Positions 29,688 to 44,875 of a stretch of 64,000 bases of DNA are shown piece by piece. Position numbers and translations under genes: made by a program. Numbering within the stretch: position 1 is the first letter of the stretch; every line of letters begins with the position of its first letter. The DNA comes from Bacteroidia bacterium (GTDB lineage: Bacteria > Bacteroidota > Bacteroidia > Cytophagales > JAAEPT01), in assembly GCA_030431525.1 (NCBI GenBank), contig JAUIJC010000012.1:1-64000 (forward strand). The letters are read 5' to 3'. The notes under the pieces are model-generated. The model ran no database searches, was not told the origin of the DNA, and saw nothing but the letters and a program-made list of their open reading frames with translations.

Positions 29688-30383
29688 ATGGAAGCACTTT
29701 TTCTTTTAATCATCATCGGTATTTTAATTGTAGGCTCATTCCTTCTTTATTTCCATATCAAGAGACAAAAAGAGAGAACAAAAGCCTTTGAATTGGTTGC
29801 CAAGGCATTGGGTTATTCTTTTAGAGAGACTGATGAAAAGTTAAAGACAGCTTTTAAAAAGACTTCAATTTATAGGAGCCGAGGCAGTTCTATCAGGAAT
29901 GTTATTACAGTAAGGGAAGAAGGGGCTAATGCTGATGTTTTTGAGTTCAGATTTAGTCGAGGAACTGAGGAGAGTAGAAGGGTTTATGATCAGACCGTTT
30001 ATAGACTTAGACTAACAGACTCTTCAACCAAGTTTCCAGAATTCCTGTTGGAACCACATGATTTTTTAGATTCCATTGCCAAATGGTTCGGTGGACAAAG
30101 TATAGAGTTTAAGTCCTTCCCTGAGTTTTCAGATAGGTATCGACTGAGAGGTGAGAATGAAAAAATGATTCGATATCTGTTTAATGATGAGTTGGTTAGA
30201 CTTCTTTTAAAAAGGAGAGAAGGACTTTTTTTGGAGGTTGTGGGAGATTCGATGTATATGTACAGAGAAGATCATCAAGCTAAGCCGACGAAGGAATCTG
30301 TTCAGGATTATTTTAGACGTTATCACTCCATCGGCATGGCTTTCAAAAAAGCATTGGAAGAGTCGGTTTCCATTCAGGAGTGA
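29688..30383 (+). CDS. Membrane-anchored protein of unknown function, copy 2
   Basis: About 231 aa from the ATG at 29688 (a GTG at 29679 is possible). It is a tandem paralogue of the preceding gene, with the same N-terminal helix plus HIKRQKERTKAF, ADVFEFRFSRGTEESRRVYDQTVYRLRLTDS, KWFGGQSIEF, YRLRGENEKMIRYLFNDELVRLLLKRREGLFLEV and YHSIGMAFKKALEE (segments listed separately). Much more A/T-rich than copy 1, suggesting different ages or relaxed constraint. 15 bases separate the genes, so they form an operon. Confidence 0.66.
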   Translation: MEALFLLIIIGILIVGSFLLYFHIKRQKERTKAFELVAKALGYSFRETDEKLKTAFKKTSIYRSRGSSIRNVITVREEGANADVFEFRFSRGTEESRRVYDQTVYRLRLTDSSTKFPEFLLEPHDFLDSIAKWFGGQSIEFKSFPEFSDRYRLRGENEKMIRYLFNDELVRLLLKRREGLFLEVVGDSMYMYREDHQAKPTKESVQDYFRRYHSIGMAFKKALEESVSIQE

Positions 30384-30435
30384 TTCAGTGCACGGTATCG
30401 CAGGGCACAAGGCCCTACGTTACTGACAGCGAGTG

Positions 30436-31086
30436 CTACTTTTTTACCTTCAACCGAAATTTTAATTGGCTGAAAAACTCCCGTTGTTTTCGTTCTTCTT
30501 CAGAGGAAGAATTTCCCACTTTCAGGCCAACCCGTTTGTGTGCAGTGATGGGAGAGGGCGTGGTTTTATGAGGAACCAGCTTAACGGCTCCTTCAAAAAT
30601 ATGGCTTCGGTGAATCAGCTGAAGACGTTCCTTTTCAGCATCCGTCCACTTCAAGGATTGACGCCATTCATCGCTTCCCATTTTTAGCCGTTTTCGTCCC
30701 TGTTCCCCGCGGACAATGGTTTTCAGACTGGTGGCTGAACCATCACGGAAATCCAGTTCTCTGATTTGAATGCCTCCATATATGCCGAGTTCGCAGTTTC
30801 CGCAGGTAATGTCGATGCCTGAATAATTTGGAGCTCGCTTGCCGTCATAATGCAAGTAAAAGGTGTCAGCTTTGAGTTGTTCGTCAAAGCGGTGGGTGAA
30901 CGGGTCTTCAAAATGATGGGGGATAAACAGGTAAAGCTCCACGGCGGTAATTCGCCAAGTCTCCCCAAAGGCTTCCAGTTTGTACTCAAAAAAGAGCTTG
31001 TGAGCTACCTGCTGAAACCAATGTTCAATTTCATCAAGTGATTGGAATGTTTGGGCTTGGAAGGTTGGGGGAGGGGGAATTGTCAT
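30436..31086 (-). CDS. Uncharacterised protein, possibly remotely AAG-glycosylase-like
   Basis: A 216-aa soluble protein. The central part reads TAVELYLFIPHHFEDPFTH, KADTFYLHYDG, GIDITCGN and YGGIQIREL. The order V-E-x-Y, D...TH, FYLHY, GG-x-I-R is reminiscent of the alkyladenine glycosylase (Mpg) fold (VETEAY, ASHA, YVYLIYG, AVLIRA), but the match is weak and the length is shorter. The C-terminal 60 residues are charged and basic. The stop is followed by a tract rich in basic codons. I do not assign a function. Confidence 0.55.
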   Translation of the reverse strand: MTIPPPPTFQAQTFQSLDEIEHWFQQVAHKLFFEYKLEAFGETWRITAVELYLFIPHHFEDPFTHRFDEQLKADTFYLHYDGKRAPNYSGIDITCGNCELGIYGGIQIRELDFRDGSATSLKTIVRGEQGRKRLKMGSDEWRQSLKWTDAEKERLQLIHRSHIFEGAVKLVPHKTTPSPITAHKRVGLKVGNSSSEEERKQREFFSQLKFRLKVKK

Positions 31087-31120
31087 GTGGTGAAATTAGG
31101 ATTTAATGGACGTAGTTCAA

Positions 31121-31247
31121 CCCCACCTCTGTCCTCCCCTTATCTAAGGGGAGGAGAATGTTACAGCTAATACATCCCAATAGTGGTTTTCAGACTACAG
31201 ACTGGTGGTATCTCCTCCCCTTGGATAAGGGGAGGACAGAGGTGGGG
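31121..31247. repeat. Long intergenic inverted repeat (37-bp arms)
   Basis: The left arm at 31121-31157 begins CCCCACCTCTGTCCTCCCCT. The right arm at 31211-31247 is its complement with one mismatch. Each arm also contains its own small palindrome (CTCCCCTTATCTAAGGGGAG type). A 53-base loop lies between. It stands between divergent genes and looks like a dispersed repeat, not a terminator. Confidence 0.85.
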
Positions 31248-31441
31248 TCGACCCAGAGTTTTGGGACGGACACACATGCCCCTTCATGTCCCCTTTTTCA
31301 TTAACCCACAGTTTCTTAAACCTTAAGTCCCTATATTTAGAATAACACCCAGCCTGAAATGGTTACCACCAAAGGAGCGCCAGCACTTTTAAAGGATTGG
31401 GAAAATCTTTTAGGGCCGTGAAAAAACAGCCCAAATGCTAA

Positions 31442-31454
31442 TCCCATTTTGGGA
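31442..31454. promoter_or_regulatory. Palindrome TCCCA-N3-TGGGA upstream of the histidine kinase
   Basis: A shorter copy of the TTCCCA-N3-TGGGAA element found at 4032 and 4893, 67 bases before the kinase ATG. The spacer (TTT) equals that of the 4032 site. Confidence 0.4.
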
Positions 31455-31520
31455 AAAGCCCGTATTAGGAAGGGAACTGGGCCATTTTTAGCTTCTGAGG
31501 CCCCACTTACTTTTTTGTCT

Positions 31521-33335
31521 ATGAATCACCATACCAATACATGTCTCTTGTTGTCCCTCGTGCCAGACGATTCCATGAATTATCTGGAAAACTGCCTGCT
31601 GTTCTCCAATCAGCTGATGAGCCACCTCTCCATTGAGGGCTTTTCTCTATGGCCCAAGGGCGGAAAAACGCCCGCCTACGAGTCGGGAAAAGTGCCCGAA
31701 AGTTTAAAGGAGGAAGCCGAGCATTTTGAATTGATGGGGCAGGAATGGATGGAAACCAAGGAGGGAGTTTGGTTTGCACTCAAGGGCGTTGGACAATGTT
31801 TTTTGGTGTCCAAGGATAAAGAGTGGTTGAAGGATTCCGTGCCTGAATTATGGGTCGGCGTGTTTAACCGTTTGGCCAAGGTACTTCGCAAGGCTTCCAA
31901 AGGCGGTGAGTCTTTAGATAAGAAAATGCAACAGCATTTGGACACCATCGTGGTGATGGCTCGCCGTTTGGGCAATAACATCCAAGAGGAGGAAGCCCGC
32001 AGAATGCTGGAATTGATTATCCAGTCGGGCGAGGACCTTATCGGAGAGGTGCAAAGCCAGCATGGCAAACAGGTGGTTCAGCCGGAGCCATTTTCCATCG
32101 GCCAGTTATGCGCTGAGTTGGAAGGGATTTATGGCCCAAAGGCCAGAGAAAAAGGCCTTACGTTCAGTTTGATTTTGTCGGGTGTTCCCGATGGACTGAT
32201 GGGCGACAAGCTATGCATCCGTCAGGCTCTGATGCCTTTGCTGGATAACGCTTTGAAATTTACCCCGAACGGAAAGGTCGCGCTTGAAATCTTCAGCAAG
32301 GAAATCAAGGAAGGTTCCTGCCGTGTGCATTTTAAAATTGAGGACACGGGGGTGGGCATCACCCAAGACCGTCTTGGTCGCATTTTCGAATTCTTCTCGC
32401 CGAGCAATGACCTACTGCCAGATTCTTCTGGGGTGACTGGCTTGGGCTTGGGCATTAGCAAGAAAATCATTGAGGCCATGGACGGAAAGCTCTTGGTGCG
32501 CAGTGAGCCGAAGAAAGGCTCCACGTTCCACTTCGCCTTGGATTTGCCCCTTTCGGGACCGATGGAATCGGAGGGCGATGCGATTGATGCCGATTATACT
32601 AAGCTGAAAGGGGTGAGGGTGTTGGTGGCCGAGGACAATGTGTGCAACCAGTTGCTGTTGCAGAAGATGTTGGAAAATGTGGAGGCGGATTTTGAAATCG
32701 TGGATAACGGTTTGGATGCCGTGGAAGAGCTCAAAAGAAAGGTTTTCGATGTGGTGTTGATGGATGTGCAGATGCCCACCATGGATGGCTTGGAAGCTGT
32801 CCAGCAAATTCGCGGGGTGCTGAACCTTGGGATTCCCGTGGTGGCCATGAGTTCCCGTTCCGCCAATGCCGACCGTCTTCGCTATATGTACGCCGGCATG
32901 GATGAGCTTCTGGCAAAGCCTTTTGACAATGTGGAGCTTTCAACCGTGTTGATTAGCTTATTGCGAAAGCGCGGACAGGACGTCGGAAAGAAATGTTTTT
33001 CTCTGACCCGATTGGAGGAAATGGCTGGCAACGACATCCATTTTATCAAGAACATGATGAATTCCATGGTGCGTGATGTCACCGGTTTGTTGGGAGGAAT
33101 TGCCTGTAGTTGGAAGCGCGGGGATATGGAGCAGGTGATTGATTTAGGGCATCAGCTTCGTGGCACCTGCGACTTTTTTGACGCCAAGATTTTGGTGGAG
33201 GCCATTGACGATATGGAGCAAGGTTTTGAGCAGAGCGTGGGACTGCGGGAGTTTGGGAATTGCGTCAACCAAGTGAAGCTGGCTGGCCATGAATTCCTGA
33301 GCCAGCTCAGGGGGGAGTTGACTTTGATGCGGTGA
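31521..33335 (+). CDS. Hybrid histidine kinase with receiver and Hpt domains, atypical H-box
   Basis: A 604-aa cytoplasmic protein with no membrane helix. The N-terminal ~110 residues look GAF/PAS-like. A helical hairpin near residues 130-170 (MQQHLDTIVVMARRLGNN) stands where HisKA should be but lacks the usual H-E/D-x-x-T/N-P. The ATPase domain is good: N box LLDNALKFTP (~240), G1 EDTGVGI (~273), G2 GLGLGISKKI (~307). The receiver has VLVAEDN, phospho-Asp in VLMDVQMP (~413) and the Lys of LAKPFD. The C-terminal Hpt has LGHQLRGTCDFF (His ~543). The target regulator is not in the window. Confidence 0.85.
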   Translation: MNHHTNTCLLLSLVPDDSMNYLENCLLFSNQLMSHLSIEGFSLWPKGGKTPAYESGKVPESLKEEAEHFELMGQEWMETKEGVWFALKGVGQCFLVSKDKEWLKDSVPELWVGVFNRLAKVLRKASKGGESLDKKMQQHLDTIVVMARRLGNNIQEEEARRMLELIIQSGEDLIGEVQSQHGKQVVQPEPFSIGQLCAELEGIYGPKAREKGLTFSLILSGVPDGLMGDKLCIRQALMPLLDNALKFTPNGKVALEIFSKEIKEGSCRVHFKIEDTGVGITQDRLGRIFEFFSPSNDLLPDSSGVTGLGLGISKKIIEAMDGKLLVRSEPKKGSTFHFALDLPLSGPMESEGDAIDADYTKLKGVRVLVAEDNVCNQLLLQKMLENVEADFEIVDNGLDAVEELKRKVFDVVLMDVQMPTMDGLEAVQQIRGVLNLGIPVVAMSSRSANADRLRYMYAGMDELLAKPFDNVELSTVLISLLRKRGQDVGKKCFSLTRLEEMAGNDIHFIKNMMNSMVRDVTGLLGGIACSWKRGDMEQVIDLGHQLRGTCDFFDAKILVEAIDDMEQGFEQSVGLREFGNCVNQVKLAGHEFLSQLRGELTLMR

Positions 33336-33346
33336 TTGCATGTAGG

Positions 33347-33402
33347 TCATAAAAAATAGCCCTGACAGGTTTCCAAAATCTGTCAGGGCTATTTTTTTAT
33401 GA
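33347..33402 (+). terminator. Terminator built on the CCTGACAGG repeat
   Basis: GTCATAAAAAATAGCCCTGACAG (split: GTCATAAAAAATAGCC, CTGACAG) pairs with CTGTCAGGGCTATTTTTTTATGAC (split similarly), a stem of over 20 bp with A- and T-runs inside. It lies between convergent genes. Same core as 39157-39199 and 63011-63081. Confidence 0.85.
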
Positions 33403-33411
33403 CTTACCTTT

Positions 33412-34134
33412 TCAAAGACTCAATTCAATCCGCTCTTTGCTATTCGCATGCACCGCATAAAAAGTTCCAGGCCACACATAGTTCGTTTCATTTGGCCCAT
33501 GAATAAGCACACCTGTAAGCAGGGCATAGTCAAATGGCTCCTTGTCAGAAACCTCAATTAGACGTTCAAAATCGTCAATCATGATTTCATGTGTGACTTT
33601 TGTGATCGTCTTTAGATCGGGTTTCTCTCCGTACTCCAGTTTTTCAAATATTTTGGACTTCAGCGTGCTTTGTTCAATGTCGTCCAAGTCCATGTGAAAG
33701 TGAACCTTGCCAGATTCAATTTCAGAAACAATGGCGATCAATGCACCGCATGCCGATGAAGGTTTGTCTCTTCCTTCACGCATGACTTTACTCACCTCAC
33801 CATCTTCAGAAATAGCGATATGTGGCATTCCTATAAACACATAGCGCTCTAAACCGTCAATGACTGGTGCGTGGCTGGTCGCCGCTGCAAATCCTGTTTT
33901 TCCCAAGGTCAATGGCCCAGCTAAGCTGGAAAAATTGAATACCTCTCCCCAAACCTTATCAGTTTGCTCCAGAAGAGGCATGGCGATTTCATCCCGACAA
34001 GTGGAGACACAGGCAAAGCTGTTGACATCATTAAAACCATGCTCCGTCAGTTTTGCATAGGTCTGAGCCAAGTAGTCATCCAAGGGGAGGCTACCAGGAA
34101 AGTGTTTATCAAGTGCTGATTGGAAGGTGGACAT
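33412..34134 (-). CDS. LCIB/C-like carbonic-anhydrase-domain protein
   Basis: A 240-aa protein resembling algal limiting-CO2-inducible proteins LCIB/LCIC (theta-type carbonic anhydrases). Diagnostic segments are HFPGSLPLDDYL, SFACVSTCRDEIA, WGEVFNFSSLAGPLTLGKTG, AATSHAPVIDGLERYVFIGM, PHIAISEDGEVSKVMREGR and SSACGALIAI. Candidate zinc ligands are Cys46, His88 and Cys129, with Asp48/Arg47 beside the metal. The start is the ATG at 34134; an in-frame extension to 34191 is unlikely. No carboxysome or bicarbonate transporter is nearby. Catalytic activity in bacteria of this family is documented for some members only. Confidence 0.78.
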   Translation of the reverse strand: MSTFQSALDKHFPGSLPLDDYLAQTYAKLTEHGFNDVNSFACVSTCRDEIAMPLLEQTDKVWGEVFNFSSLAGPLTLGKTGFAAATSHAPVIDGLERYVFIGMPHIAISEDGEVSKVMREGRDKPSSACGALIAIVSEIESGKVHFHMDLDDIEQSTLKSKIFEKLEYGEKPDLKTITKVTHEIMIDDFERLIEVSDKEPFDYALLTGVLIHGPNETNYVWPGTFYAVHANSKERIELSL

Positions 34135-34237
34135 GGTGCGAGTGATTTTTAAAGTATGAAAAAGTGTTAAAGCGTTTTTGGTTGTAGTCAAAGCTAACTA
34201 CTTCTCATGTAATACTTTATTAAAATGTGTTTGGGGC

Positions 34238-34289
34238 ATTCGAAATGTTGATGACAGTTTCGGGTGCATTTCTAAAGTGCTCGAGGAGG
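34238..34289 (-). repeat. Divergent copy of the cassette 3' flank repeat
   Basis: ATTCGAAATGTTGATGACAG and the following CTCGAGGAGG resemble the 96-bp repeats at 35828-35923 and 39264-39359 (about 39 of 52 positions by eye). It overlaps the last codons (PPRAL-stop) of the 34272-34616 gene. Confidence 0.5.
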
Positions 34290-34616
34290 TTTGGTGATTC
34301 TCGAGGCAGCTGCATCCAAGAGTAGGATCTTGGGTCCTCCTTCATCGGTAGGTGTAGAGACTTGATATTCACCTGTTAATCCACCTATAACTTGAGCGCA
34401 GTACACTTCTGCTAAGAATTTCTCATTTTCATAAATGTTTATACCTACTTCTTCAGGATCGTCATCAGAAATAAGAATTTCATAACTCAGCATTGGGTTT
34501 AGTGATTCTAGGCCTGCCAATAAGGTGTTGAGCATGTACCTTTCAATTTTGGAAAGCTTAGGGGCCATCGTTTCTAGTATTTCATTTTTAACATTTATTC
34601 GGTTTTCCATGGTCAA
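34272..34616 (-). CDS. Small protein of unknown function
   Basis: A 114-aa soluble, acidic protein with no signal peptide (MTMENRINVKNEILETMAPKL...). It has a helical N-terminus and a strand-rich middle (YEILISDDDPEEVGINIYEN, FLAEVYCAQVIGGLTGEY). I recognise no family. The last five residues are encoded by a flank repeat shared with neighbouring cassette-like units, which suggests the gene entered the locus with or into that repeat. An inner ATG at 34610 may be used. Confidence 0.55.
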   Translation of the reverse strand: MTMENRINVKNEILETMAPKLSKIERYMLNTLLAGLESLNPMLSYEILISDDDPEEVGINIYENEKFLAEVYCAQVIGGLTGEYQVSTPTDEGGPKILLLDAAASRITKPPRAL

Positions 34617-34733
34617 AAAATTGAATGATAAGGTTGTGAAAAACAGTTGTAATTACACGACTATGACTATTATGATTCCTGATAGATTCACTTGAAAGGT
34701 TTTCTGCTTTATGGATTAATATCCTATTGTTGT

Positions 34734-35822
34734 GACTTTGTTGCACAGACCTGAATCACCTTGAAGTGATTTCCACCTTACCCTAACCTCAGTAAAGTCC
34801 CGTAGCCGTCATTCGGTTGAGAATGCTAACTCCAATGTAGGCTTCGGTGGCCTGTGACTCAATATTTCGTAAATAGAATTTGTTACCAATAATTGTTTTG
34901 TAGCGATACATTGCGACCTCGACAAGACTTCGCTTGTGATATCCCTACTCCTCTTTCCATCGTTTTCTCCCCTTGTGATAGATTTCCTCGATGGCGTGGT
35001 TTCGTTCGGCCACATACGGTTTCATCAGCTCATCGTGGTATCTCGCATTACCGGGTGGTGGAATATGTTGTTTAATACCTCGTTCAAAAAGTGGTTGCCT
35101 ACACCGTTCAAGGGCATCATAAGCACCGTCCCCATATAAATCTTTGATTTTATGGCCTTGTCCTTCAACCTCGTCAATAATGTCGTCAAGTATTTCAGCA
35201 TCATGTATATCATTATGGGTGACCTGAACAGAAAGGATCGCTTGGCTTTCCGCATCCCCCCCCTAGATGTAATTTTCTCCACTTCCTACGCTTGGAAAAC
35301 CCATATTTTCGGGCTTTCCATTCTCCCTCGCCATAGACCTTGATTCCCGTGGAATCCACCAAAAGGCTAACGACATGTTCCGGTATTGGCGAGGAGGCCC
35401 AGATGGTGATGGTTTTTGACCGGCGACAGACCAAGGTGTAGTCTGGAACCTTCAGGGGTAGCCGACACAAACGAAACAGACTTTCCAGTAGGTCTTGGGT
35501 CTGGCGGTAAGAAGTGCTTTGATGGTGAAGAAGAACTCAAAACATATATCGCTATAACGTCGCATACCGCCTTGTAATTGATGACCGGTGAACTGCCAGT
35601 TCCTCAATACCTCCTCGGTTAGCCAGATGTCAAGCGAACATCTCCCTTTTAGGGAATTATTATAGCGGGGCCAATCTCTGGTAGGGGTAATTGCGTTCAT
35701 GACTGTATTGCGAAAAGGCGTGGGCTGAGTCTGTTTGTATCTACATTAACTACTCAGAAACCCACGTCTTTTATTGTGTCAGAACGTCAAAAAAAGGTGA
35801 TTCAGGTCTGTGCAACAAAGTC
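34734..35822. mobile_element. IS5-family insertion sequence (IS903-like), inactive
   Basis: Perfect 29-bp terminal inverted repeats begin GACTTTGTTGCACAGACCTG at 34734-34762 and end at 35794-35822. The flanks share TTGT on both sides (34730-34733 and 35823-35826), a possible 4-bp target duplication. The element is 1089 bp and carries one broken transposase gene. It abuts the cassette flank repeat that starts at 35828. Confidence 0.92.
34789..35700 (-). pseudogene. Disrupted IS5/IS903-type DDE transposase
   Basis: On the minus strand the pieces read MNAITPTRDWPRYNNSLKGR, then (shifted) LPLKVPDYTLVCRRSKTITI, LLVDSTGIKVYGEGEWKARK, then (shifted) VTHND-like NDIHDAEIL, DLYGDGAYDALERC, ERGIKQHIPPPGNARYHDEL, and KRSLVEVAMYRYKTIIGNKF. 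The DDE residues lie in VDSTG, YGDGAYD and VEVAMYRYK. There are three lesions: a frameshift near 35510, a second at a run of eight G (35256-35263 region), and a TAG stop near 34950. Transposition is therefore dead unless a factor is supplied in trans or slippage repairs frames. Confidence 0.88.
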
Positions 35823-35827
35823 TTGTG

Positions 35828-35923
35828 AACTGTCAAAAGCATTTGTAATGCTTTGTGGGATGGTGGGGATATTATAAATATTGTTTACGGTTTCGAACGC
35901 TTTACAAAAACGCCCGAGGAGGG
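35828..35923 (-). repeat. Cassette 3' flank repeat, copy A
   Basis: A 96-bp segment matching 39264-39359 at about 90 positions by eye (AGCATTTGTAATGCTTTGTG core, ending GCCCGAGGAGGG). It lies just downstream of the 35968-36543 gene, in the same relative place as copy B to its gene. It contains a small inverted repeat, GCATTTGTAATGC. Confidence 0.85.
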
Positions 35924-35967
35924 AAGGTGTTTCGAATACTTTACAAAAGCACCTGATAAGGTGTTTT

Positions 35968-36543
35968 TTAATGATTGTAATAAAACACTTTCATTTGAAT
36001 TTTAAGAACCGCCTCTACTTTATTCAATAGTTCCATTGCTTGATTTTCGTGATAGTCTAAATTTACAATCCTGACCTGAAGCTTTGAAAAACCTACGTTT
36101 GGTTTATAATTCAATAGATTCAAGGAGTTTTGTTTACCACAGCAAGGAGTCTCAAAAGTTAGGCTTGAAAAGTCTACCCAAGAAGCTTCTTCCATTTTAG
36201 TTGTCCAATCATCCATTGAAATTTCACTTCCACATAGGTTACAATGAACAGATTCAAAATATCCTCCTGCGTCTACAAAATATGGATTATCAAAATTCGA
36301 TATTTCTATTTCGTTTGATGGATACGTACTTGACAAAGTATCCATTAGTTCTTTTCGTTTTTCAAGACTTATTTCAATGAATGGTTCTTCGGTTATAATT
36401 ACAACATGGTTTCCCGAGTAAACTGCATCCTTTGGTTTATACACCATCTTATCTACTTCCTTACTTTTATCCATTTCCGAAGTCCTCCCTAAGCCACATG
36501 CAAGAAGCATTAAAGATTGCAGTGTGATTATTATATGTCTCAC
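35968..36543 (-). CDS. Putative lipoprotein with zinc-binding cysteines
   Basis: A 191-aa protein. The short N-terminal helix ends in a lipobox-like LLACG. The body has a CNLCG knuckle near residue 103 and a PCCGKQNSLNLLNY motif near residue 140, together a probable four-Cys zinc ribbon. The pattern W..KM...SWVDFSSLTF-PCCG-SLN-L-Y-GF recurs in widespread uncharacterised bacterial proteins. Strongly A/T-rich relative to the housekeeping genes. Flanked on both sides by repeats shared with the 39393-39965 gene, so it is likely a mobile cassette passenger. The function is unknown. Confidence 0.62.
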   Translation of the reverse strand: MRHIIITLQSLMLLACGLGRTSEMDKSKEVDKMVYKPKDAVYSGNHVVIITEEPFIEISLEKRKELMDTLSSTYPSNEIEISNFDNPYFVDAGGYFESVHCNLCGSEISMDDWTTKMEEASWVDFSSLTFETPCCGKQNSLNLLNYKPNVGFSKLQVRIVNLDYHENQAMELLNKVEAVLKIQMKVFYYNH

Positions 36544-36552
36544 TAAAAATGT

Positions 36553-36803
36553 GTGCTAACAGTTGTGTAAACCCAATACTTGAGTTTATCCACCCTTATA
36601 GATGGAGGTTATAATATAGCCTGAATGGTGCTGAGAGCCTATTTTTTTTGATGGACCTGCTTTAAACAGTGATAGGGTTTAACCTACATCAAGAAGCCTT
36701 TTTTGCCTTCATTTTTCTCCCAACACTTATTCGAAGCCCCCTAAAATCATGGATTTCACCTGCCATTTTCGAGTATCACAAAACAAAAAGCTCGAACAAT
36801 GGA
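36553..36803 (-). repeat. Cassette 5' flank repeat, copy A, ending in a truncated creD start
   Basis: This segment fills most of the 310-bp gap before the cellulase gene. 36560-36640 resembles 39971-40058 (shared TAAAC...GTTTA hairpin and CCACCNTTATAGATG). 36720-36803 is identical to 40148-40231 at 82 of 84 positions and carries the creD promoter region and first codons, but no creD follows. GTGCTAAC (36553-36560) marks the edge next to the gene. Confidence 0.85.
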
Positions 36804-36854
36804 GGGTGAAACCCATTTATTAGAAGTTATTCAAAGAGGTCAATGAAAGGTTCA

Positions 36855-38993
36855 TCACCGTTTCACAAACCGGACAGTTTCATCACCGTTTTTGAGGTAA
36901 TAAACACCTGTGGGTAGCGCTTGAATATTGATTTGTTGTCCAGTGCCCGAGGCAACTTCCTCTCCAGTGACATGGTAGAGTGTCCAAGAGAGGTCTTCGG
37001 TACCCTCTATGACCACTTGTGAGTGCGATGGGTTGGGGTAAACATAGAGCTGTTGTGAATCGGTTTGGGGGCTGGTGTTTCCAGTCAGGATTTCGTTGGG
37101 CTCCACAAACTTTGATAACAGCCGGATATAGTTCACTTGGTAATTGCAACTGTTCTCGGTGACTTCCCAAGAATTGATGGGCCACGAGTGGTTAAAGTCC
37201 ATGTATGATTTTTGATCGGGCTGGCCGACAATCACGGAAATGTCAACGGCTTGGCATTTGGCATTGTTGGTTGCACTTCCACAATTGTTTGGGCAACAGT
37301 CGTCCCAATCGTATTTGGGATTAGGTCCTCCCACCAAGAAGGCAGGGGCAGGGCCATAGGTGGACACGCCCACCTCATCCCATAGGGCGCTTCCCTGATG
37401 GAACCATCCATGATAAAACTGGTTCACGGAATTTTCTGCGCCAAAGGCTCCCATGTTAGATAGGTAGGCTTTGGATAATGGGTTCACACCGTGTAAGTAA
37501 TGGATATAGTGTTCGGCGACCTGAAGTGAGGCATCCTTGTTTGATGGGTCCAGCTCGTAGCTGTGCAATCCATAAAACATGAGCCCTTTAACGCATTTCT
37601 TAGAGTTGGATCCCCAAGTATAATCTTTCAGGTAAGCCAGATACGGGTCTTTCACATCTTGCACTGCGCCAAAATTGTGTGGCCCTTGCATGGCCGTCAC
37701 ATAGACCGACTTTATTTCCTCGGCCACTTCATTCGTGTGGTTAGGGACTTGGGTATAGTGGAGCAAGAGTTCCTGTTCACGTCCTTCAAAGGGATAGGCA
37801 AAGTTCCACTTCATCAAGTGGATTTCAGAGTAATTTGCGTCAAAAAAGTCACGGTAGGCTGTTTTTCCAGTCAATTCAAAAAGGTAGAGGGCCAGTCGCA
37901 TTTTGTAAAACAATCGACCATAGTCATCGACCTCCTGCTGTCCGCCTCCGATACCCTTTGAACCGTAGGCTTCATCGTTGTTTTTCCAGATGACATCTGG
38001 GTTGTCGTTCGCCCAATCCCAAGCCTTTTCGGCATTGGCAGTCAGTGCCATTACTTTCGACTCCATTCCAAAGTCCTTCAGCACCAAGGCGCTCTTGGCA
38101 TAAGCCGAACCTACACTCAATGCCGATGAGGTGTTGACATGGCCATAAAGGCTTTGCCCATTGGCTACTGATGGCGGACTGCCTTGGGCCACAGCCACAA
38201 TTGAAATGACTGAGCCGTCGGGTTGTTGGAGGCGTTCTAAATATTCGAGCCCCCAAAGTGCTTCGTCGATGATGTCAGGACGACCATTGCCCGATTCCGG
38301 AATTCCATAATCATCTCCCCATATTTCAGGCCTTTCTTCATAAGCCTTGAACAGGTCAATGACATAGTCTGCCGTCCAACTTGAGTATTTGTTAAAATCG
38401 CCTGCGTCATACCAGCCCCCATGCAGGTCTTTCTCCGTGGTTGCATTGTTTGGGTCATCAAACGAACGGCATTGGGAGTCCTGCAATGGCCCCAAATGAC
38501 TCGCACCATCTGCCCAGCCCTCACCCGCGTAGGGCGCTTCTTTCACAAAACCTGACCGTTGGTAGAAAAATGTGCGAACGGCCTGTTGTAGCACTTGATT
38601 ATAGATCTGTTCGTCAATGGAAAACTCATAGGACCGTAGGTTGTTCGATGGATCCAGCACATAATATCGACCAGCCTCTTCAACCTCGGAGAAGTCAAAC
38701 CACCAAGCTTGGTCGCCAGATGATGCATCCACGGCTCCTCCGTTCCATTCCTGAATGTTCGAAGTGAAGACATGATTGCCATTGGTGGCATCTACGAGGG
38801 CGAAATTGGTACTTGGCGAAAATGACTTTTGGGCATCTGGTCCTTCCTGAGGATTGCGGATAACCGCTATTTTTTCGCCAACAGGTCGATAGCCAAACTG
38901 ATCGACAACAATGAATTCTGTGATGGATTGGGAGAATAATTGCTGTCCCGATAGAAGGAGCAAAAGCAGAAAGGGGGTCGAGATTCGCATCAT
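36855..38993 (-). CDS. Secreted GH9 endoglucanase with T9SS sorting domain
   Basis: A 712-aa exported cellulase. Signal peptide residues 1-22 (LLLLLLSGQQLFSQ). An N-terminal Ig-like CelD_N domain (about 24-115, VVDQFGYRP). The GH9 alpha/alpha barrel spans about 125-605 with catalytic Asp pair in LHGGWYDAGDFNKYSSW and acid Glu in SWPINSWEVTENS, plus the YLSNMGAFGAENSVNQFYHG and GGPNPKYDWDDCCPNNCGSA segments. The C-terminal Por domain (about 640-712, YVYPNPSHSQVVIEG) directs T9SS export. It hydrolyses beta-1,4-glucans. No susCD pair or other CAZymes are adjacent. It lies between two copies of the creD 5' end, suggesting insertion by recombination. Confidence 0.92.
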   Translation of the reverse strand: MMRISTPFLLLLLLSGQQLFSQSITEFIVVDQFGYRPVGEKIAVIRNPQEGPDAQKSFSPSTNFALVDATNGNHVFTSNIQEWNGGAVDASSGDQAWWFDFSEVEEAGRYYVLDPSNNLRSYEFSIDEQIYNQVLQQAVRTFFYQRSGFVKEAPYAGEGWADGASHLGPLQDSQCRSFDDPNNATTEKDLHGGWYDAGDFNKYSSWTADYVIDLFKAYEERPEIWGDDYGIPESGNGRPDIIDEALWGLEYLERLQQPDGSVISIVAVAQGSPPSVANGQSLYGHVNTSSALSVGSAYAKSALVLKDFGMESKVMALTANAEKAWDWANDNPDVIWKNNDEAYGSKGIGGGQQEVDDYGRLFYKMRLALYLFELTGKTAYRDFFDANYSEIHLMKWNFAYPFEGREQELLLHYTQVPNHTNEVAEEIKSVYVTAMQGPHNFGAVQDVKDPYLAYLKDYTWGSNSKKCVKGLMFYGLHSYELDPSNKDASLQVAEHYIHYLHGVNPLSKAYLSNMGAFGAENSVNQFYHGWFHQGSALWDEVGVSTYGPAPAFLVGGPNPKYDWDDCCPNNCGSATNNAKCQAVDISVIVGQPDQKSYMDFNHSWPINSWEVTENSCNYQVNYIRLLSKFVEPNEILTGNTSPQTDSQQLYVYPNPSHSQVVIEGTEDLSWTLYHVTGEEVASGTGQQINIQALPTGVYYLKNGDETVRFVKR

Positions 38994-39156
38994 ACTATAC
39001 TTTTTGGGGAGGAGATAATGAGGCCCATTTGAATGATTGGGCGAAGAGGTACAGAGCGTATAAGTTCGACAGGGAAATTATCGTCTGTAGTCCTAAAAAT
39101 AAGAATTTCAAAATTCTATCCTTGGTATGGATGCGAAACCAAAGGGGAGGGACAGC

Positions 39157-39199
39157 AAAAAGCCCTGACAGGTTATGGGAACTTGTCAGGGCTTTTTTT
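39157..39199. terminator. CCTGACAGG-type terminator hairpin
   Basis: AAAAAGCCCTGACAGGTT pairs with AACTTGTCAGGGCTTTTTTT (one mismatch). Same core as 33347-33402 and 63011-63081. Confidence 0.78.
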
Positions 39200-39263
39200 G
39201 GGTCTTGGTTTTTTGAAGGCTTAACAGCCCAGTGTGCTCGAGCGTGTTTTATAACGCGTTCGA

Positions 39264-39359
39264 AACTGTAAATAGCATTTGTAATGCTTTGTGGGATGGT
39301 GGGGATATTAGAAATATTGTTGACTGTTTCGAACGCTTTACAAAAGCGCCCGAGGAGGG
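39264..39359 (-). repeat. Cassette 3' flank repeat, copy B
   Basis: Matches 35828-35923 over 96 bp with about six differences, and the weaker copy at 34238-34289. It lies downstream of the 39393-39965 gene. GTTAGCAC at 39386-39393 abuts the stop codon of that gene. Confidence 0.85.
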
Positions 39360-39392
39360 CTCGAGGAGGATTGCGCATAGGATTTGTTAGCA

Positions 39393-39965
39393 CTAGTTTT
39401 CTCCTTTTTTTAAGGAGTCAAGTGTTCCATCCTCATTCCAGTAAGTCCAATCGTTCTGTTTCTTGCCATTCACGTATGAGCCATGTCCTTTTATTTGGCC
39501 ACTCTTATAATATTCAGACCATTGCCTCTCTTTTTTTCCATCAAATCGGTCTCCTGTGGCCCTTGGTTGTCCGTTCTCAAAATACCAAGTTGACTCTCCA
39601 TTGAATTTTCCACCTTTTGCCAGTCCTTTAAATCCTAGAAATAATTTTGGACCAAATTCAAATACGTATCCTTCACGTTTACCTTTCTCGAAGTTGATTA
39701 ATGCCCCTACCTCCATATTGTCTCGAAAGTAAATTTGTGTCCCGTTTATTTGTCCATTGGAGTAGGGAATTATTTCTTTTATTCTCCCTATGCTGTCGAG
39801 TTTAAGGTTGTAATAGGTGTTTTTGTTAGTTGTATTTAACACCATTTTTTTAGGTTGTCCGTTGCCCCAAGTGTCTTTTGATACGTGGGCCTTATCGTGT
39901 TTTTCAGAACAGCCACATAGAACGATTGCTGTCAATAGAAGTGTCGATACTTTTTTTATTTTCAT
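39393..39965 (-). CDS. MORN-repeat lipoprotein (YwqK-like)
   Basis: A 190-aa lipoprotein from the ATG at 39965, with signal MKIKKVSTLLLTAIVLCGC and lipobox LCGC. MORN-2 type repeats follow (SNGQINGTQIYF, FEKGKREGYVFEFG, FENGQPRATGDRFDGKKERQW, YKSGQIKGHGSYVNGKKQND). Such YwqK-type proteins are annotated as antitoxin-like but act more often as envelope proteins. It is flanked by repeats shared with the 35968-36543 cassette. The longer frame to 40118 reads through the flank and is not the start. Confidence 0.7.
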   Translation of the reverse strand: MKIKKVSTLLLTAIVLCGCSEKHDKAHVSKDTWGNGQPKKMVLNTTNKNTYYNLKLDSIGRIKEIIPYSNGQINGTQIYFRDNMEVGALINFEKGKREGYVFEFGPKLFLGFKGLAKGGKFNGESTWYFENGQPRATGDRFDGKKERQWSEYYKSGQIKGHGSYVNGKKQNDWTYWNEDGTLDSLKKGEN

Positions 39966-39970
39966 AATTG

Positions 39971-40231
39971 CTGGCAACGGTTTTCTAAACGCCCCACTAT
40001 GGCGTTTAGCCACCTTTATAGATGACCCCGTGAATATAGCCCTAATGGGGTCTGTGAGCAAATTGTGTGTGAAAGGGACCTTTTTCCAACTGGCATTTAT
40101 ACAGAAGTAGTGTTTCAACTTTCACCCCAACACTTATTCACCAACCCCCAACACTTATTCGAAGCCCCCTAAAATCATGGGTTTCACCCGCCATTTTCGA
40201 GTATCACAAAACAAAAAGCTCGAACAATGGA
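39971..40231 (-). repeat. Cassette 5' flank repeat, copy B
   Basis: Contains a 9-bp stem CTAAACGCC / GGCGTTTAG at 39986-40010 region, then CCACCTTTATAGATG as in copy A. 40148-40231 is the 84-bp segment duplicated at 36720-36803, which includes the creD ATG (40227). Here creD continues intact. Confidence 0.85.
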
Positions 40232-43083: not shown

Positions 43084-44875
43084 ATGCCTAATGAACTCAC
43101 GCCTTTTTATACGTTTTCTCAGTTCTTACAAGAAGATTTAGCCACCTGGGGAAATAAGTTGGTGAAGCATCATGAAAACTGTATGAATGAAGCTCCCAGT
43201 CGGGAGCAAAAAGTTGCATGGAAAAACTGCTTTGAGTTTCTACAAGATGTATTAGCGCCATTTTCTCAGCTGCCAGGAGAAATCATTTTTGAATATGAGC
43301 TTCCTCGAGAAAGGGGAAGGCGACCTGATGTGGTTTTGCTGCTGCAGCATCAGGTATTAATCCTTGAGTTTAAGGATAAGTCCACAGCGAAACAGGCCGA
43401 TTTTGAACAGGCGTTAAATTATAGAAGAGACATTGCCAGCTACCATTCAGCATCGCATGAGCTGGAAATGACTGCGGCATTGGTAGTAACAAAAGGGGCT
43501 GCATCACGTCAAAAGGACAATATTCATATTGTTGGAAAAGAAGGCTTAAGAGACCTGCTCAATGACCTGATTCAAGAATCCATAGTTTCCCCCAAAAAAT
43601 TCTGCAAAGGACTGGATAAATGCGGATTACGAGGCGTTGCCAAGCATTACAGAATCTGCAAGAATTCTATTTCAAGAAGGGACATTTCCTTCTATCAAGA
43701 AGGCCCAAAGTGCAGGTATTCCCCAAACTATTTCACTATTAAAAACCCTGGTTGATACTGCAAAAAGGGAGAACGCTCATTTTTTGGTGTTGATCACAGG
43801 CGTTCCTGGAGCAGGCAAAACATTGGTAGGGCTTCAATTTGTTCATGAAGTTGATGAGGCGATTTACCTTTCAGGGAATGGGCCATTGGTGAATGTTTTG
43901 AGAGATTTATTGGGGCAGCGGTTTGTCCATGATGTGCATGGATTTTTGAAACAGTATGCCAGTAACAATGCGCCACAAGAGCATATTTATGTTTATGATG
44001 AGGCGCAAAGGGCTTGGGACCAACAGAAAGTACAGCAACGAAGGCCTCGTGGTTTTTCTGAGCCAAGTGATTTTATCAGGATAGGAGAGCGGAAAGAATG
44101 GGCAGTGATGTTGGGACTTATTGGCCAAGGGCAGGAAATCCATTTGGGTGAAGAATCGGGCTTGATGCTATGGAAAGAGGCTTTGGAGGGGGGCGCCAAG
44201 GAATGGAAAGTGTTTTGTCCTGAACAACTCAAAGCGCTATTTGGAACGCCTCAAGTGCATGAACAGTTGAATTTAGATGTGTCTCTTCGAACGCATTTAG
44301 CCGATGATTTACAGGCTTGGACAGAAGCATTGTTGCAAGGAGATATTCAAACTTGTCAGGATCTGATTAAAAAGGTGCGTGGTGAAGGCTTTAGTATTCA
44401 CTTAAAACGTGATTTACCTGCGACCAAAGATCACGTCAAGAATCTTTATGCTGGGACTATTGACAAGCATTATGGCCTAATTGCATCCTCCAAAGGGCAA
44501 GTCCTCAGGCAGTTTGGTGTGGATAATAGTTTTGACGCAACCAAGTCTGTAAATCAAGTGCAGTACTATACGGCTTTACCTAAATCACCCAACTCATGTT
44601 GTCAACTCAATCATGTGGTGACAGAATTTGGTTGTCAAGGCTTGGAGTTAGATTACCCTATCGTTTGTTGGGATGATGATCTGATTTTTAAAAATGGGGG
44701 CTGGGTTGATACGTACCCAAATAGAAAAGCACGGGACTCCTTCAAATTAAGGTTAAATGCCTACAGGGTGTTGCTAACGCGGGGTAGAGACGGAATGGTC
44801 ATTTATATTCCTCCATCCGAAAAACTTGATTCAACTTTTGAGCTTATCAAGCAAGCAGTAACTCCTTCAAGCTAA
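43084..44875 (+). pseudogene. Frameshifted nuclease-DUF2075 helicase protein
   Basis: Two overlapping frames make one protein of about 595 aa. The N-terminal half has a PD-(D/E)xK nuclease core (GRRPDVVLLLQHQVLILEFKDKS). The C-terminal half is a DUF2075/Schlafen-3-like NTPase with Walker A GVPGAGKTLVG, Walker B YVYDEAQRAW, and QGLELDYPIVCWDD plus RVLLTRGRDGMVIYIP (motif VI). The shift lies in CCCCCAAAAAA at 43589-43599; deleting one A restores ...SPKNSAKDWINADYEALPS.... Either a pseudogene, a phase-variable gene, or a sequence error. These proteins occur near defence and mobile genes. No partner was seen. Confidence 0.78.

What the first reader, a model, noticed from the sequence alone, without database searches (positions are those of the whole stretch)
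33412..34134. LCIB/C-type carbonic anhydrase in a heterotrophic Bacteroidota
The protein retains the CRDE, SHAPVIDG and CGAL motifs with three probable zinc ligands of algal CO2-concentrating proteins. There is no carboxysome or transporter next to it. It sits at the edge of an accessory island. It may serve pH or CO2 supply to carboxylases, or have been acquired laterally.
Basis: partly seen in the sequence, partly recalled or inferred. Interest (0 to 1): 0.55.

Follow-up and report, generated by a model that had tools for sequence, protein, structure and literature searches.

The report
Algal-type LCIB carbonic anhydrase in bacterium
A bacterium in which no RuBisCO gene was found carries a close relative of LCIB, a protein green algae use to trap carbon dioxide, of a different type from the related enzymes seen in its bacterial relatives.

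Summary
Confirmed: window 33412-34134 (minus strand) encodes a 240-aa LCIB_C_CA protein (PF18599, 186 bits). Zn ligands C46/H88/C129, the D48-R119 pair and H105 are intact; the model matches solved LCIB-family structures (Z 26-29). The family is not rare here: PF18599 in 31 of 390 genomes of the order. The subtype is unusual: the protein groups with Chlamydomonas LCIB/LCIC (41% and 38% identity; support 100/99) and shares R47 and A128 with them. The 50 other bacterial members in the tree lie elsewhere (grouping with them: p-AU 0.003), and no second bacterial LCIB-subtype was seen in samples of order, phylum and class. The genome has no PF00016 RuBisCO match but has a beta-CA, a gamma-like protein, a bestrophin and a DabA/DabB pair. 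Most likely: a cytosolic zinc carbonic anhydrase gained laterally; activity and donor are inferred. Side result: in 13 of 68 theta-like loci examined a bestrophin gene lies beside the enzyme gene on the same strand; bestrophin-like proteins are reported to interact with LCIB/LCIC in Chlamydomonas (PMC6708349, passages).

The parts
33412..34134 (-). LCIB/LCIC-subtype LCIB_C_CA carbonic anhydrase gene, 240 aa; Zn ligands C46, H88, C129; pair D48-R119; H105; R47
33342..33407 (.). Strong hairpin with A/T flanks, probably a two-way terminator between the convergent kinase gene and the LCIB gene
   Evidence: -35.9 kcal/mol, z -9.2; the simple scan (loops of 3-8 only) did not list it
31449..33335 (+). 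Hybrid histidine kinase gene (HATPase and receiver domains, weak Hpt), convergent with the LCIB gene
34272..34616 (-). 114-aa ORF without Pfam or NCBIfam match, same strand, ends 137 bp before the LCIB start codon; GC 0.40
34734..35822 (.). Insertion sequence bounded by perfect 29-bp inverted repeats; transposase (DDE_Tnp_1_5 match) broken into pieces
35968..36543 (-). 191-aa ORF, GC 0.335, no Pfam or NCBIfam match
36855..38993 (-). GH9 glycosidase gene with CelD_N and Por_Secre_tail domains, beyond the IS

Best explanation
The gene encodes a soluble cytosolic zinc carbonic anhydrase of the LCIB/LCIC subtype. Zinc held by C46, H88 and C129, with the D48-R119 pair orienting the zinc-bound water, interconverts CO2 and bicarbonate. 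It works without an LCIC-like partner (none found in the genome), beside a beta-CA and a DabA/DabB pair, in a cell without a PF00016 RuBisCO match, so its likely use is the bicarbonate/CO2 supply of ordinary carboxylations and pH balance rather than carbon fixation. The lineage acquired it laterally from outside the theta-like pool of its phylum, long enough ago for composition to adapt. Shown: family, subtype, intact site, predicted fold, single copy, other CA genes. Inferred: catalytic activity, residue roles, location, physiological use, donor.
For: PF18599 186 bits. Best solved relatives CrLCIB 1.9e-39 and CrLCIC 2.1e-34, against 8.1e-17 or weaker for the other six sequences. CrLCIB alone as query scores 139.6 bits on the window protein, 69.9 on 9vzj and 62.8 on the next bacterial protein. 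Tree: window+CrLCIB+CrLCIC 100/99, 100/100 in a second tree; grouping with the 50 other bacteria p-AU 0.003. R47 and A128 are shared only with CrLCIB and CrLCIC among 56 rows; C46, D48, H88, H105, R119, C129 are identical in all 56. AF2 model pLDDT 92.5; VIA Z 28.6 to PtLCIB4, 28.0 to CrLCIB at 2.0 A, 26.4 to CrLCIC; classical beta-CAs 12.0 and below. CrLCIB is reported to act as a CA in yeast and Arabidopsis CA mutants (Kasili et al. 2023: title in the reference lists of PMC10473226 and PMC13389267, cited in passages of PMC13275658). No PF00194 alpha-CA and no PF00016 RuBisCO in the genome.
Against: Three purified LCIB homologues (by the residue numbers, my inference, including CrLCIB and CrLCIC) were reported without CA activity, put down to a widened cleft and disordered H162/161 and R194/193 (passage of PMC5876011); a 2023 review still calls the LCIB/LCIC activity unconfirmed (passage of PMC10096703). 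The window protein has R47 as the algal ones do, where the diatom enzyme has S; a PtLCIB4 S47R structure exists (5b60) and I could not read what that change did. A beta-CA is already present. The window row has a long end branch (1.71), which the tree tool warns about, and the AU test was run after the tree was seen. No eukaryote genome and no other bacterial phylum could be searched by profile, so the donor is unknown.
Confidence: 0.65

Rival explanations
1. It keeps the zinc site but is catalytically poor on its own, acting as a regulated, structural or CO2/bicarbonate-sensing protein, or needing an unknown partner, as proposed for purified algal LCIB/LCIC.
For: Same subtype and same R47 as the algal proteins; purified LCIB homologues reported inactive; a beta-CA already present.
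Against: All ligands and the Asp-Arg pair kept over a long branch, which suggests selection for the site; CrLCIB reported active in CA-deficient hosts; no second PF18599 copy in this genome to form the algal hetero-complex.
Confidence: 0.22
2. Vertical relic (a rival on origin, not on function): the LCIB subtype is an old bacterial form, lost in most of the phylum and kept here, and green algae took theirs from bacteria.
For: Long branches on both sides (1.71 window, 1.41 algal stem) and unremarkable composition mean that the split is old; other phyla could not be sampled.
Against: No other LCIB-subtype seen in the order, phylum and class samples or in the one other genome held of its family (G016, 84% complete); many parallel losses would be needed.
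Confidence: 0.25
3. Assembly contamination by algal DNA.
For: The nearest relatives found are algal.
Against: Single uninterrupted ORF inside a 110-kb contig of bacterial genes; genome 99.97% complete and 0.23% contaminated; an IS and a terminator-like hairpin beside it; codon usage within about one sd of the window's; only 41% identity to CrLCIB.
Confidence: 0.02

Closest known systems
Chlamydomonas LCIB (PDB 5k5w) and LCIC (5b5x)
   Same: Nearest relatives found, 41% and 38% identity over the aligned stretches; same zinc ligands, R47, A128, ERYVF..PHIAI stretch; model superposes at Z 28.0 and 26.4
   Different: No N-terminal extension, no second paralogue found, no PF00016 RuBisCO match in the genome; a bacterial gene with no recognised partner gene beside it
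Diatom PtLCIB4 (5b5y) and the PtLCIB4-like PDB sequences 6kfs and 9vzj (source organism not shown by the tools)
   Same: Same family and zinc site; PtLCIB4 and 6kfs also same fold at Z 28
   Different: About 20-26% identity; S or C at position 47, C at 128, shorter loop after H88; separate branch
Theta-like LCIB_C_CA proteins of the same phylum (for example L002, L013, L036)
   Same: Same Pfam family and invariant active-site residues
   Different: 20-29% identity; S/A at 47, C/S/N at 128, Q/M at 122; 13 of 68 loci examined have a bestrophin gene beside them, the window gene has none
Classical beta-CA (PF00484)
   Same: Related fold (Z 12.0 and below) and, from established knowledge, a Cys-His-Cys zinc site with an Asp-Arg pair
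   Different: No PF00484 match for the window protein; the genome has a separate PF00484 gene

Membership tests
LCIB_C_CA (PF18599) | Whole-protein score above the curated cut-off | tested here: met
   186.2 bits against 25, profile positions 2-222 of 223
LCIB_C_CA (PF18599) | Cys-His-Cys zinc ligands and Asp-Arg pair | tested here: met
   C46, H88, C129, D48, R119 identical in 56 rows; their roles are inferred from the PDB mutant name H88A, the H162/R194 passage and beta-CA knowledge
LCIB_C_CA (PF18599) | LCIB fold | tested here: met
   AF2 pLDDT 92.5; Z 26.4-28.6 to the six LCIB-family PDB entries listed, 12.0 or less to the other 44 rows
LCIB_C_CA (PF18599) | Carbonic anhydrase activity | not testable with these tools
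   Needs an assay
Green-algal LCIB/LCIC subtype | Monophyly with CrLCIB and CrLCIC | tested here: met
   100/99, 100/100; rival grouping p-AU 0.003; only two algal LCIB-type sequences were available
Green-algal LCIB/LCIC subtype | R47, A128 and the ERYVF/PHIAI stretch | tested here: met
   the choice of these marks is mine, from the alignment
LCIB-LCIC heteromeric complex of the pyrenoid CCM | Second paralogue and RuBisCO in the same organism | tested here: not met
   One PF18599 gene; no PF00016 match. So not filed as part of that system
PtLCIB4-like (diatom theta) subtype | Groups with PtLCIB4, 6kfs, 9vzj to the exclusion of CrLCIB/LCIC | tested here: not met
Classical beta-CA (PF00484) | PF00484 match | tested here: not met
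   No match up to E 1

The most novel reading that the evidence does not exclude
Bacteria of this phylum without RuBisCO run an inorganic-carbon module built from the same kinds of parts as the algal CO2-concentrating mechanism (LCIB-family carbonic anhydrase plus bestrophin bicarbonate channel, with DAB in this genome) to feed anaplerotic carboxylation. The window gene would be a bacterial branch of the LCIB/LCIC subtype itself, from an alga-bacterium exchange, active without LCIC.
Probability: 0.2. Interest if true: 0.75.

Novelty: new member of a known kind. Interest (0 to 1): 0.5.

Why it matters
Whether LCIB alone is a real carbonic anhydrase has been argued over because purified LCIB homologues were reported inactive. 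A compact, single-copy bacterial member of the same subtype, with no LCIC partner found, is a direct test object. The bestrophin-enzyme gene pairs in relatives give an independent, evolutionary hint that LCIB-family proteins and bestrophins work together, which in Chlamydomonas is reported from an interactome study (passages of PMC6708349).

Tried and rejected
Bestrophin-LCIB fusion: a 573-aa frame in L154 looked like one; translation showed an out-of-frame read-through over two separate adjacent genes. Rejected.

Sole carbonic anhydrase: rejected, since a beta-CA and a gamma-like protein are present. LCIB_C_CA does not stand in for beta-CA in general: beta-CA is in 25 of 31 LCIB_C_CA-positive and 23 of 31 negative genomes of the order that I compared (the negatives are those printed in earlier lists, not a random draw).

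Recent transfer by composition: not supported. Synteny through the kinase gene: matches in 5 genomes are 22-46% identical stretches of many kinases, so uninformative.

Close relatives elsewhere: genome-contig scans with P0001 and with A1 gave no relative (narrow exact peptide patterns, so weak negatives; the same scans also missed the theta-like members that other calls found); no match in plasmids or phages at 1e-5; viral contigs none for A1, 7 theta-like loci for A2. Rfam: nothing above gathering score in window 30000-40000. Promoter scan no better than shuffles (4 found, 3.6 expected).

The first translation script ignored locus strand and gave wrong frames for minus-strand loci; corrected.

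Full report
Observation. The minus strand of 33412-34134 encodes one 240-aa protein; frame 1 of the plus strand has six stops. It matches one Pfam family, PF18599 LCIB_C_CA, at 186 bits over nearly the whole profile, and one copy was found in the genome (G000, 4.24 Mb in 75 contigs, 99.97% complete). No NCBIfam model matches.

Which kind of LCIB. In the PDB the best relatives are Chlamydomonas LCIB (1.9e-39) and LCIC (2.1e-34); PtLCIB4 forms, 6kfs and 9vzj/9w05 score 8.1e-17 or weaker. Identity to the aligned stretches of CrLCIB and CrLCIC is 41% and 38%; to 50 other bacterial members 20-29%. With CrLCIB as query, the window protein scores 139.6 bits, 9vzj 69.9 and the next bacterial protein 62.8. 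A maximum-likelihood tree of 56 sequences puts window, CrLCIB and CrLCIC on one branch (100/99), PtLCIB4, 6kfs and 9vzj next to them (98/92), and 50 bacterial ones on the other side (eight near-copy or broken members were left out: L003, L004, L006, L007, L024, L027, L048, L055). I call those 50 'theta-like' for their motifs; in the tree they are not inside the diatom branch. Forcing the window protein with the other bacteria costs 49 log units (p-AU 0.003); the test was made after the tree was seen and the window branch is long. A second tree of 72 rows agrees (100/100) but warns that long branches meet. R47 and A128 occur only in the window protein and the two algal ones among the 56 rows. 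With only two LCIB-type algal sequences at hand, the tree shows the subtype, not the donor.

How common. PF18599 occurs in 31 of 390 genomes of the order. A profile of the window protein with the two algal ones (A1), which is narrower, matched 36 of 395 genomes of the phylum and 17 of 395 of the class. All three counts include G000 and the samples overlap. Beside G000 (365.5 bits, inflated because it is part of the model) the best A1 score was 75.4. The one other genome held of its family has none (84% complete). Of the order's other members, 29 were aligned and two more (the second copy of G154, and G228) entered the tree; a 63-position fragment in G064 was not examined. No other LCIB-subtype bacterium was seen. 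Other phyla and eukaryotes could not be searched by profile.

Active site and fold. C46, D48, H88, H105, R119, C129 are identical in all 56 rows. H88 lines up with the His mutated in PDB 5b5z (PtLCIB4 H88A), and H88 and R119 with the H162 and R194 of CrLCIB named in PMC5876011 (passage; the numbering offsets are my own count). The AlphaFold2 model from 51 window and locus sequences has pLDDT 92.5 and pTM 0.89; it superposes on PtLCIB4 (Z 28.6), 6kfs (28.1), CrLCIB (28.0, 2.0 A, 34% identity) and CrLCIC (26.4), then the list drops to 12.0 and below for classical beta-CAs. So a working zinc site is likely. Against that, three purified LCIB homologues were reported inactive (PMC5876011 passage) and a 2023 review calls the activity unconfirmed (PMC10096703 passage); for it, LCIB is reported to act as a CA in yeast and Arabidopsis CA mutants (Kasili et al. 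2023, title in reference lists and cited in passages of PMC13275658). The 2016 PNAS structure paper was not held.

Genome setting. The genome has one beta-CA match (C12), one gamma-CA-like hexapeptide protein (37% identity to E. coli YrdA; a second, weak match is the window's own acetyltransferase-like ORF near 24.7 kb), no PF00194 alpha-CA, no PF00016 RuBisCO, one bestrophin match (C68) and a full-length DabA with a proton-antiporter-type (DabB-like) gene and a divergent LysR gene beside it. All of these lie on contigs other than the LCIB gene's. The LCIB gene converges with a hybrid histidine kinase gene, with a strong hairpin between, and is preceded by a 114-aa ORF without family match and an insertion sequence with perfect 29-bp ends and a broken transposase. 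Its composition is within about one sd of the window's genes. 'Heterotroph' rests here on the missing PF00016 match only; other fixation pathways were not tested.

Relatives and bestrophins. Of 79 other genomes with a family match in the three scans, I fetched about 5 kb either side in 68 (29 of 30 from the order scan, 25 of 34 from the phylum scan, 14 of 15 from the class scan). In 12 of 68 a bestrophin-profile match lies within 200 nt on the same strand, and in one more (G826) the upstream neighbour at 257 nt is 53% identical to the G334 bestrophin; one of the 13 is a 162-aa piece (G973). Among 64 neighbour proteins scanned (63 same-strand neighbours within 250 nt and of 90 aa or more, after dropping the second half of the broken G215 gene itself, plus the G826 one) Bestrophin_2 is the commonest family with 13 members, against 5 for the next. 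The 13 genomes belong to five families (f11, f13, f82, f84, f93). In G213 the order of the two genes is the reverse of that in its genus mate G323. Those in the tree (12 rows; G360 left out as a near-copy) all lie in one 21-row clade (97/91) and need five changes of state, so this is best read as one old association with losses or re-formations. Beta-CA matches lie within 400 nt of a listed bestrophin in 3 of 79 listed matches (the bestrophin list was cut, so a lower bound). In Chlamydomonas LCIB/LCIC is reported to interact with bestrophin-like proteins (passages of PMC6708349). Two paper searches for such bacterial pairs listed no title or abstract about them; the library is partial. The window gene is outside that clade and has no bestrophin beside it, so this bears on the family, not on this gene directly.

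Verdict. The best reading is a cytosolic zinc carbonic anhydrase of the LCIB/LCIC subtype, laterally acquired, in a cell without a PF00016 RuBisCO match. Family and subtype are well supported; activity and donor are inferences. That LCIB homologues occur in bacteria is already known (recalled from the 2016 PNAS abstract, not read here; the PNAS work is cited for a cyanobacterium in PMC5876011). A bacterial member of the LCIB/LCIC subtype I did not meet in the listings and passages seen.

Noticed in passing
L099, L100, L102, L104, L107, L108, L109, L112, L154, L155, L168, L169, L174: Bestrophin (PF25539) gene beside a theta-like LCIB_C_CA gene on the same strand in 13 of 68 loci examined, five families, one 21-row clade; gene order reversed in L112 (G213)..
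   Followed up: partly
L073-L079 (IMG/VR contigs, up to 217 kb): Seven viral-collection contigs encode theta-like LCIB_C_CA relatives (25-28% identity to the window protein; L073 and L074 give the same protein), with N-terminal extensions; either virus-borne carbonic anhydrases or mis-sorted contigs.
   Followed up: no
G004 and G104 (fetched as L164, L165, L166): Classical beta-CA matches lie within 400 nt of a bestrophin match on the same strand, so bestrophins pair with another CA class too.
   Followed up: no
L162 5308-9443 (G000 contig C2): DabA and DabB-like genes with a divergent LysR regulator in a genome without a PF00016 RuBisCO match.
   Followed up: partly
L152 / L082 (G853); L101 (G215): PEP carboxylase gene 195 nt downstream of a theta-like gene in G853; in G215 the theta-like gene has an internal TAA.
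   Followed up: no
window 34734-35822: Insertion sequence with perfect 29-bp inverted repeats and decayed transposase.
   Followed up: partly
window 43084-44875: Two overlapping ORFs that by eye may be one gene with a frameshift; not checked beyond an empty NCBIfam scan of the first.
   Followed up: no
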